Shown here piece after piece: positions 7,342 through 60,754 of a stretch of DNA of 64,000 nucleotides. Both the position numbers and the translations under genes were made by a program. Positions within the stretch are counted from its first letter, which is position 1; each line of letters begins with the position of its first letter. Source of the DNA: Liolophura sinensis (Eukaryota > Mollusca > Polyplacophora > Chitonida > Chitonidae). Location: contig NC_088301.1 in NCBI RefSeq assembly GCF_032854445.1, positions 55,415,187 to 55,479,186 of the forward strand. Direction: 5' to 3'. The notes beneath the pieces are model-generated. The model saw only the letters and a list, made by a program, of their open reading frames with translations. It searched no databases and was not told the origin of the DNA.

Positions 7342-10300
7342 CTAGCTGTCTGACTGTCTCTTCTTGACCATCTCCAGTTCAGCATTTGCCCGTACCTCCT
7401 TGAATGTGAAATCTCTCAGCAGCTTACCATTTTCAAAAACAACTTGAAGTAGATCCTGAAATAAAGAGTTCAAAACCATGTTCATTTGATACATTACGCC
7501 CAGTGCTGCCTTGGCAAGAAATGCAAAACTAAACTATACTACATCACATTCATTTTGGTTGTGACCACAGTAGTGATTTCTTGTTATCTGTTTGACATGA
7601 TGTCTGCACCAGTCAATTTGTATGTTCTGGTATATAAATCAAAGTAGAAACTGAAAAGCTATGATCACGAGGTGTCATTTGGTATACTGAAACGACTATT
7701 GCATGTTGCAGGGTGGAACATCACACAGAGAGTGCCTCCTGAATATGGGATATTGGGATATCAGGAGTTGTCAGAAGTGATAGTGAAGTGATATTCAACT
7801 ATTGCAAAGCACAAGTTGAATATCACTTGTCGAGAGCTGACAATTCCAGATATTCCATCCCCCAGCATGCACTGTATGTTTTATTATACCAAAAAAGCAG
7901 GGTCCTTGCTCCACTGGAGCTTCAAACTGCTGAATTTAATCGCTGAAATTGAATGTTGCAAGTTCCTTACTGAAGGTTACAGTTTTGGAACACACAGTAT
8001 TTTTACAAGCTGTAAATTTACCTCTTTTGGATTTCCATGGCCTTCTTGAATTGTTGCATATTCTCCATTGATAACCTCCAATGAAAGCCTCCCCTTTTTG
8101 CTCTTCTTGACCTGATCGGTGATTGGTTGCTTGAACACATTTACCTGAAAGCCGAAATTGTAAGAGGTCTATTTACAGGTGACTAAATCAGCATGAAATG
8201 AAACTTCAACTATTCAAACAAGGAGTTAAATTTTATTTATGTTTTAAACATGGATGAGTTTGTACTTCATTACTATTGTTTGGGTTTGAATTATACAAAA
8301 GATACATACAAGTATTACCCTAATTCCTCAACCTTTTTGCAAATAAAAAAGCTACTTTCAGCTCAATTAATACACATTATTAATTTGATTTTGGAGACAA
8401 AACTATATTGGTCAAATTGGTGAAGTTGAGGGCTTCACAAAAAGTGTAATTTTATCAGCTTACACAGAATAATGCATTCAGAACATGTCTGTATACACAC
8501 CTTGCAAACATATGAAAAGGTTGAAGAATTAGAGTAGTAACGATAAAGTTACTGATATCTTTCATAATAACAGGCTTATTATAATATACTTCATTCTGTC
8601 ACAAAGATGTTATTTTATTTGTGTACATTCCAAAAGAATGGTGAAATACAGGAATTTCTTCATAGATAAATGTCATGTTTGTTATTATGCCTTTGTTATA
8701 GCCGTACTCAAGAATATTTCACTTATACGACGGCGGTCAGCATTATGGTGGGTGGAAACTGGGCAGAGTCCGGGGGAAACCCACGAGCATCCGCAGATTG
8801 CTGGCAGACCTTCAAAATGCAATATATTCTATGTAAAAATTAATGGAAAATCATAGCACGAAATTATCCTGTCATTAGTTTTAATTTGACCAGTTGGTTC
8901 AGCCTAAGCAAAATGCAAAAGCACAGATACATGTACTCAGTAAAATCTTTTGGAATGTACACATTTGTTTTATTCTTGACCTTTAGAACAACTGGAGTAA
9001 ACTTGTATACACACCTCTTTTCCATTGATCACTGTATAGCTACACTTGTAGGCACACTTCTGAGTATCACGGTCAATTCGTTGCAGCAAGGCTCCCCCAC
9101 TGCCAAATGCAATATTGTCTGAACTCCATCCATGGACCTTCATGCATTCCAAGATTGTGGACAATGATTCGTAGCTGATCCCGTCACCTTGTATTATCCT
9201 CACATAAGGAGGTAGCATCTTGTAACCTTTGGTGTTCTTGGTCACTCCAAACTTCTGACCCAGTATATCCAACACCTGTCCAAAAGACACCACAGAGTAT
9301 TACAGTATCAAGACTCGCTCTTCAGTTCAAAGTTATCTTTCTGAGAAGGTGAAAATTACTCAAGAATACTTTACTTACACGACAGCGTCTAGCATTATGG
9401 TGGGGGGAAACCAGGCAGAGCCTGGAGGAACCCACGACTATCCTCAGGTTTCTCTGAGACCTTCCCACGTACAGCCGGAGAGGAAGTCAGCATGAGTTGG
9501 ACTCACAGCGACTATATTGGTGAAAGGTTCCTCGGTCATTATACCCTGCTGGCATGCTAACCATCTAGGCCACCGAGGCTCAATTAAAATATGAAACTCC
9601 ACAAACTATGGTAAAAGGTAAGCTTTTAACTTATCAAATCAATGCGCAACATAAGATTTTTCAGGATAGTATCAGGGTTAATGTTTAGGCGAAGTCTTAC
9701 TATACCATTATCATTTTTGACAATTTAACAAAAATTATGGCTCTTTCAAAATCTTGTCGCTGTACGTGGGAAGGTTTTGTCAGCAACCTGCGGATAATCG
9801 TAGTTTTACCCCTGGCTCTGCCCTGTTTTTTCTCCCACCATAATCCTGGCTGCCATCACATAAGTGAAATATTCTTGAGTACGACGTAAAACACCAATCA
9901 AATAAATAAATAAAATCCTGTCCATCAGAATTAAATTGCCCTGTTCCACTAATCTCTTATAATTGTTTATCTTTACACTAAAAGTAGGCTACGTCTATCA
10001 TGAGCTTCTTCATTCTGAGTAACCTGAAGCCAATGGTATAATCCTCGGGCTTGGATATACCTGTACCTTTACAGGTAATACTTGAGTATGAGGACCGGAT
10101 TACCTTAATGACCACCTCTGCTGGATCTCCTGAATCAGGCCGTATGACAAGAACTCCACCATTTTTTCCCCTTTCCACCACGCTGTCCTTCAGCACACCA
10201 CCCCAGAAGTGATCACAGGCATTCCAGATATTGTAGCTGTCGCTGACACAGGCCATGAGGCCTGTTGGGAATTTGTTCAGCATATTCCTGTACGCATCCA

Positions 10301-60754: not shown

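What the first reader, a model, noticed from the sequence alone, without database searches (positions are those of the whole stretch)
7342..60754. Undivided NAMPT - PSMA5 - synaptophysin-like neighbourhood
Seen: three complete genes, NAMPT(-), PSMA5(-) and SYPL(+), side by side with PSMA5 and SYPL head-to-head. Known from memory of human maps: SYPL1 neighbours NAMPT on 7q22, and SYPL2 neighbours PSMA5 on 1p13, with ATXN7L1 and ATXN7L2 close to the respective loci. Inference: this window keeps the ancestral bilaterian order. The two human loci would then be reciprocal remnants after vertebrate genome duplication.
Basis: partly seen in the sequence, partly recalled or inferred. Interest (0 to 1): 0.75.

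Follow-up and report, generated by a model that had tools for sequence, protein, structure and literature searches.

The report
Ancestral gene neighbourhood around synaptophysin
An invertebrate chromosome still carries, side by side, genes that in people lie near different duplicated copies of the synaptophysin gene, so the stretch looks like an old animal gene order that vertebrates shared out among several chromosomes after duplicating their genomes.

Summary
NAMPT (-), PSMA5 (-) and one synaptophysin-family gene (+) are complete, spliced and adjacent; NAMPT and synaptophysin each matched one locus in this genome. Published human tables put SORT1-PSMA5-SYPL2-ATXN7L2 together on chr 1 and ATXN7L1, SYPL1, NAMPT, HBP1, COG5, DUS4L, BCAP29 in one chr 7 locus. 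Here COG5 and DUS4L stand head-to-head 246 kb from NAMPT, and PQBP1 lies 22 kb past synaptophysin. Human PQBP1 is near SYP on Xp11.23 by recall; the paper read shows only a shared Xp11 duplication table. In searches with nine neighbour families, 8 of 9 had the expected gene on this chromosome, 9.9% of the genome. The vertebrate paralogon is already published. A new instance of a known kind.

The parts
7342..16655 (-). NAMPT, complete CDS, 9 exons: 16655-16590, 15175-14945, 12392-12264, 12052-11894, 11481-11351, 10332-10104, 9275-9015, 8144-8022, 7455-7342
   Evidence: the NAMPT_N domain matched once in the genome, here
19347..27287 (-). PSMA5, complete CDS, 8 exons: 27287-27192, 26904-26778, 25565-25498, 23159-23052, 22791-22733, 21064-20962, 20293-20207, 19424-19347
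32491..60754 (+). Synaptophysin-family gene (pro-orthologue of SYP/SYPL1/SYPL2/SYNPR), complete CDS, 5 exons: 32491-32544, 50370-50488, 53540-53726, 58158-58355, 60620-60754; the start of exon 3 is the least certain boundary
   Evidence: the only locus matched in the genome
27288..32490 (.). 5.2-kb head-to-head intergenic region of PSMA5 and the synaptophysin gene
31185..31942 (-). Degenerate Tc1-like transposase pieces inside the head-to-head region
   Evidence: motif by eye; weak, below-cut-off matches only: HTH_29 E=0.0037, DDE_3 E=0.0087
3..938 (+). Open frame, probably the 3' part of the TTLL3/8-like gene whose TTL-domain exon lies about 4 kb left of the window; joining not shown
   Evidence: TTL domain of the upstream exon E=1.9e-17; the frame itself has no Pfam match above cut-off

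Best explanation
The window preserves a piece of the ancestral bilaterian neighbourhood of the single synaptophysin gene, with NAMPT and PSMA5 on its 5' side and PQBP1 on its 3' side. When the vertebrate ancestor duplicated its genome twice, the whole block was copied. The synaptophysin gene was kept in four copies (SYP, SYPL1, SYPL2, SYNPR), while each single-copy neighbour survived beside only one of them: NAMPT beside SYPL1, PSMA5 beside SYPL2, PQBP1 near SYP. No special function is needed: the linkage is a relic of slow gene-order decay. Shown here: the genes, their order, one locus each for NAMPT and synaptophysin, and the chromosome-wide company. Taken from papers: the human chr 1 and chr 7 neighbourhoods and the 2R family. 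Recalled: that human PQBP1 lies close to SYP, and human strands. Inferred: that the order predates the split of this lineage from vertebrates, and the pattern of loss after duplication.
For: Complete adjacent genes. Synaptophysin and NAMPT at one locus each. PQBP1 motifs at window coordinates 82371-86338, 22 kb past the synaptophysin stop, with its diagnostic C-terminal motif (E=9.1e-13) and a WW domain. COG5 (N- and C-terminal Pfam families) and DUS4L (Dus family; the '4L' by a recalled motif) head-to-head about 246 kb left of NAMPT; both are in the same human chr 7 gene list as SYPL1 and NAMPT. Eight of 9 neighbour families have the expected gene on C7 (CCDC22 is the exception). SORT1 and PSMD6 were identified against PDB, HBP1 by AXH plus HMG box, prickle by PET plus LIM (prickle rather than testin is recalled). 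Human order SORT1-PSMA5-SYPL2-ATXN7L2-CYB561D1 with coordinates. SYP paralogon on human 1, 3, 7, 12, X.
Against: No other invertebrate genome could be examined. CCDC22, in one 108-kb human segment with PRICKLE3, SYP and CACNA1F, is on C8 here. ATXN7, next to SYPL2 in human, is 2.36 Mb away. SORT1, next to PSMA5 in human, is 12.5 Mb away on C7. Most other genes seen in the flanks (NPHP3-like, BTB-kelch, TTLL3/8-like, HEMK1-like, SLC6) are not in the human lists I read. NAMPT orientation relative to SYPL1 differs from human (recalled). The human SYP-PQBP1 closeness is recalled, not read.
Confidence: 0.8

Rival explanations
1. Only the chromosome (ancestral linkage group) is old; the tight clustering of NAMPT, PSMA5, PQBP1 and synaptophysin in this genome is a late accident of shuffling within the chromosome, and the human adjacencies arose separately.
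For: Of the eight family-tested neighbours on C7 only COG5 is within 1 Mb: ATXN7 and THOC7 are about 2.4 Mb away, BAP31 1.3 Mb, prickle, SORT1, PSMD6 and HBP1 11.7-15.3 Mb, so order on C7 is much shuffled.
Against: Given that all are on C7, three or more shared neighbours among about 9 local genes has P 0.0004-0.018, and two named genes within two places of synaptophysin about 1e-6 to 5e-6 (gene numbers assumed). Two further pairs also stay together: COG5/DUS4L and ATXN7/THOC7.
Confidence: 0.15
2. The genes are held together by selection, for example shared regulatory elements of the PSMA5/synaptophysin head-to-head pair or enhancers of synaptophysin lying in bystander genes. This can be true together with the best explanation.
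For: Head-to-head orientation of PSMA5 and synaptophysin in the window; long first intron of 17.8 kb in the synaptophysin gene; for comparison, ATXN7/THOC7 shares a bidirectional promoter in human and points apart head-to-head here.
Against: The start codons are 5.2 kb apart with transposon debris between them, too far for a simple shared core promoter. In the human lists read, NAMPT and PSMA5 lie on different chromosomes.
Confidence: 0.15
3. Assembly error or misidentified genes produced the neighbourhood.
For: Only one assembly is held, without names or reads.
Against: No N in the window or in any of the 28 fetched pieces; whole open reading frames with proper splice sites; the neighbours match more than one human neighbourhood.
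Confidence: 0.02

Closest known systems
Vertebrate 2R paralogon of visual opsins, GNAT/GNAI, OT/VP receptors, CACNA1-L, SYP and PRICKLE families on human chromosomes 1, 3, 7, 12 and X (PMC3826523, passages; PMC8851675, one section and passages)
   Same: The quartet SYP, SYPL1, SYPL2, SYNPR is one of its neighbouring families; a prickle gene is on C7 here too.
   Different: In the passages read those studies follow multi-copy families inside vertebrates; here it is single-copy genes (NAMPT, PSMA5, PQBP1) beside an unduplicated invertebrate synaptophysin gene.
NAMPT microsynteny human-mouse-zebrafish-amphioxus (PMC3665594, passages read, figure not seen)
   Same: NAMPT neighbourhood conserved outside vertebrates.
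   Different: The paper reports conservation in chordates plus some macrosynteny; its main text holds no word beginning with 'PSMA', and the neighbours are shown only in a figure that is not held.
ATXN7/THOC7 bidirectional pair (PMC10053147; gar gene order in PMC5645911, passages read)
   Same: Neighbours pointing apart in this genome: SCA7 exon (-) to THOC7 exon (+) 23.1 kb, about 4.4 kb if an exon seen by eye is the ATXN7 start (no Pfam match).
   Different: Separate locus, 2.36 Mb from the window.

Membership tests
2R double-conserved-synteny block with differential neighbour loss | One unduplicated copy of the anchor gene in the outgroup | tested here: met
   all 4 matches at E<=0.01 are the window gene's exons; one search found another MARVEL gene on C1 that one search did not return
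2R double-conserved-synteny block with differential neighbour loss | Outgroup neighbours are shared out among the vertebrate paralogous regions | tested here: met
   NAMPT with SYPL1 and PSMA5 with SYPL2, both adjoining one gene here. PQBP1 with SYP is recalled; the paper lists both only among genes of Xp11 duplications of up to 55 Mb
2R double-conserved-synteny block with differential neighbour loss | Chromosome-wide company agrees | tested here: met
   8 of 9 families have the expected gene on C7, 9.9% of the genome; the ninth, CCDC22, is on C8
2R double-conserved-synteny block with differential neighbour loss | Same order and orientation as the vertebrate regions | tested here: inconclusive
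   PSMA5/SYPL2 adjacency agrees (orientation recalled); NAMPT side agrees and orientation does not (both recalled); ATXN7 not adjacent
2R double-conserved-synteny block with differential neighbour loss | Present in several other invertebrate phyla | not testable with these tools
   no other animal genome held; PMC3514665 not held
Synaptophysin family | Full-length MARVEL protein closer to synaptophysin than to synaptogyrin | tested here: met
   MARVEL 7.8e-24; synaptophysin 4.8e-56 over residues 5-220, synaptogyrin-1 0.0022
NAMPT | NAMPT N-terminal and NAPRTase domains, full length | tested here: met
PSMA5 | Proteasome alpha signature and best match to alpha type-5 over 241 aa | tested here: met

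The most novel reading that the evidence does not exclude
The bilaterian ancestor had one synaptophysin block that included COG5-DUS4L, NAMPT, PSMA5, synaptophysin, PQBP1 and, on the same chromosome, ATXN7-THOC7 and PSMD6. The four vertebrate copies each kept a different single-copy part (NAMPT/COG5/DUS4L on 7, PSMA5 on 1, PQBP1 on X, THOC7/PSMD6 on 3), a four-way partition that fixes which vertebrate region descends from which duplicate and can be read from one invertebrate locus.
Probability: 0.5. Interest if true: 0.5.

Novelty: new member of a known kind. Interest (0 to 1): 0.42.

Why it matters
It adds single-copy anchors (NAMPT, PSMA5, PQBP1, COG5/DUS4L) to a paralogon that the papers read define by multi-copy families. 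That helps reconstruct the pre-duplication gene order and would explain why unrelated human loci on chromosomes 1, 7 and X have synaptophysin-like neighbours. It also gives a concrete test locus for how gene order decays in animals: a few tight groups survive while the rest of the chromosome is shuffled.

Tried and rejected
The MARVEL search of the whole genome missed the window gene because it matches exon by exon; the spliced model matches well, so one search is no evidence against it. Rfam on the window gave nothing above gathering scores. Megablast of an intron stretch against plasmids was uninformative. An ATXN7-like gene in the +/-60 kb flanks was looked for by eye and not seen; the only SCA7 matches of the genome are 2.4 Mb away. 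CCDC22 as a further neighbour failed. A HEMK1-like gene between synaptophysin and PQBP1 rests on a methyltransferase-like stretch seen by eye; two of its exons gave no Pfam match. In 20 kb beside COG5 and 30 kb further left of the flank I noticed no further human-neighbour gene, but only higher-scoring open frames were printed; about 117 kb between those stretches was not read. The 12 whole-genome searches were nine neighbour families, MARVEL, the synaptophysin protein and NAMPT_N; PSMA5 copy number was not searched. Papers: among the rows listed by ten searches no title or abstract start describes a NAMPT-PSMA5-synaptophysin block in an invertebrate (listed of found: 1 of 1; 4 of 4; 15 of 20; 6 of 6; 15 of 72; 3 of 3; 6 of 6; 10 of 23; 10 of 219; 10 of 11). 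Of ten papers I saw passages, plus one section each of PMC8851675 and PMC8080037; Figure 4 of PMC3665594 could not be seen and may overlap.

Full report
What is in the window. The window is C7:55,415,187-55,479,186 of a 609-Mb assembly in 632 contigs; C7 is 60.36 Mb. Reading all frames and fixing splice sites gives three complete genes. NAMPT runs on the minus strand from 16655 to 7342 in nine exons, 480 aa; the best solved NAMPT matches at 5.1e-189. PSMA5 runs on the minus strand from 27287 to 19347 in eight exons, 241 aa, aligned end to end with proteasome alpha-5 at 9.9e-134. The third runs on the plus strand from 32491 to 60754 in five exons, 230 aa. It matches synaptophysin over residues 5-220 at 4.8e-56 and synaptogyrin-1 only at 0.0022, and carries the MARVEL domain.

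Copy number. A whole-genome search with the spliced synaptophysin protein returned four matches, all exons of the window gene. The NAMPT N-terminal domain was found once, in the window. The name SYPL is therefore too narrow: this looks like the one gene that corresponds to all four vertebrate members. PSMA5 copy number was not searched.

Neighbours. The 2.7 kb between NAMPT and PSMA5 and the 5.2 kb between the PSMA5 and synaptophysin starts showed no convincing gene; the latter contains degenerate Tc1-like pieces with weak matches only. I fetched 60 kb on each side. To the left lie a TTLL3/8-like gene (TTL domain 1.9e-17), a BTB-kelch gene (BTB 4.7e-20) and an NPHP3-like TPR gene (the finer names are recalled). 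To the right lie a HEMK1-like stretch (by eye, no Pfam match), PQBP1 with motifs at window coordinates 82371-86338, and a sodium:neurotransmitter symporter at about 95-102.6 kb (SNF 1.3e-37). PQBP1 is identified by its C-terminal motif (PDB 4bwq, 9.1e-13) and a WW domain.

Human neighbourhoods, from papers. A GWAS table gives coordinates for SORT1, PSMA5, SYPL2, ATXN7L2 and CYB561D1 at 1p13.3, which place them in that order (PMC5322272, passages). Another lists for one chr 7 locus EFCAB10, ATXN7L1, SYPL1, NAMPT, CCDC71L, PIK3CG, PRKAR2B, HBP1, COG5, DUS4L, BCAP29 and others (PMC10261125, passage). A table of copy-number changes puts PLP2, PRICKLE3, SYP, CACNA1F and CCDC22 in one 108-kb segment of Xp11.23 (PMC8517076, passages). 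PQBP1 and SYP are both listed among genes of Xp11.22-p11.23 duplications, but that table covers duplications of up to 55 Mb and gives no positions (PMC8080037, one section and passages); that they lie a few hundred kilobases apart is recalled. SYP, SYPL1, SYPL2 and SYNPR are a published 2R family in a paralogon on human 1, 3, 7, 12 and X (PMC8851675, one section and passages; PMC3826523, passages; PMC4042849, passages). Human strands and other distances are recalled.

Chromosome test. I searched nine Pfam families for genes that neighbour one of the human synaptophysin copies. Eight of nine had the expected gene on C7: ATXN7 (SCA7), prickle (PET; LIM exon beside it), SORT1 (1.5e-73 against 2.4e-30 for SORLA), COG5 (29 bits, below the family cut-off; a second exon matches COG5_C at 1.1e-8, over its cut-off), PSMD6 (5.3e-117 against 3.5e-9 for CSN1), BAP31, HBP1 (AXH; HMG box beside it) and THOC7. 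CCDC22 was on C8, although it lies beside SYP in human. Four of these families (PET, Sortilin, RPN7, AXH) also have a second gene elsewhere. Counting only the five families found on one contig, 4 of 5 are on C7 (P=4.4e-4); counting all, 8 of 9 (P=7.6e-8). C7 thus carries much of the gene content of the paralogon.

Local test. Chromosome-wide linkage alone would not put NAMPT, PSMA5 and PQBP1 beside synaptophysin. With assumed gene numbers, three or more shared neighbours among about nine local genes has P 0.0004-0.018 even if all are on C7, and two named genes within two places of synaptophysin about 1e-6 to 5e-6. Two other pairs survive. COG5(+)/DUS4L(-) is head-to-head about 246 kb left of NAMPT. 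ATXN7(-) and THOC7(+) point apart, with the SCA7 and THOC7 exons 23.1 kb apart and coding starts about 4.4 kb apart if an exon recognised by eye is the ATXN7 start (no Pfam match). The human pair shares a bidirectional promoter (PMC10053147, passage), and psmd6, atxn7 and thoc7 are consecutive in gar (PMC5645911, passages).

Results against the reading. ATXN7, next to SYPL2 in human, is 2.36 Mb away. SORT1, next to PSMA5 in human, is 12.5 Mb away. CCDC22 is not on C7. Most other genes seen in the flanks are not in the human lists. NAMPT is inverted relative to SYPL1 in human (recalled). So the core NAMPT-PSMA5-synaptophysin-PQBP1 cluster is probably ancestral, while its exact order and orientation, and ATXN7's place in it, remain open.

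What cannot be said. A paper reports NAMPT microsynteny between human and amphioxus (PMC3665594, passages), which fits, but its figure was not readable and the neighbours are not named in the text I saw. The species of the window was not identified.

Verdict. The phenomenon, a pre-duplication neighbourhood shared out among 2R copies, is well known, so the interest is moderate.

Noticed in passing
L013, L014, L020 and L021: C7:53,039,000-53,069,500: The only ATXN7-like gene matched in the genome (-) and THOC7 (+) are neighbours pointing apart, SCA7 and THOC7 exons 23.1 kb apart; the human pair shares a bidirectional promoter (PMC10053147). A second deep gene pair.
   Followed up: partly
L015 and L016: C7:55,171,800-55,183,400: COG5 (+) and DUS4L (-) stand head-to-head 246 kb left of NAMPT.
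   Followed up: partly
window 37059-37787: Minisatellite of about 24 copies of a 30-base unit in the first intron of the synaptophysin gene.
   Followed up: no
window 8705, 9357, 9871, 23639, 38644, and flanks: A short interspersed repeat holding ATTCTTGAGTA recurs (5 in the window against 0.04 expected; 28 in 325 kb held); its look suggests a mollusc-type SINE (recalled, not tested).
   Followed up: partly
window coordinates 111376-112323 and 114237-114581 (L011, L012): Minus-strand open frames resembling tyrosine-recombinase/KIAA1958-like mobile-element proteins (by eye).
   Followed up: no
G000:C39:162902-166829 and C1:85955053-85958302: Sortilin-family matches on C39 mirror those on C1, with identical scores for one exon, so C39 may be an alternative haplotype left in the assembly.
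   Followed up: no
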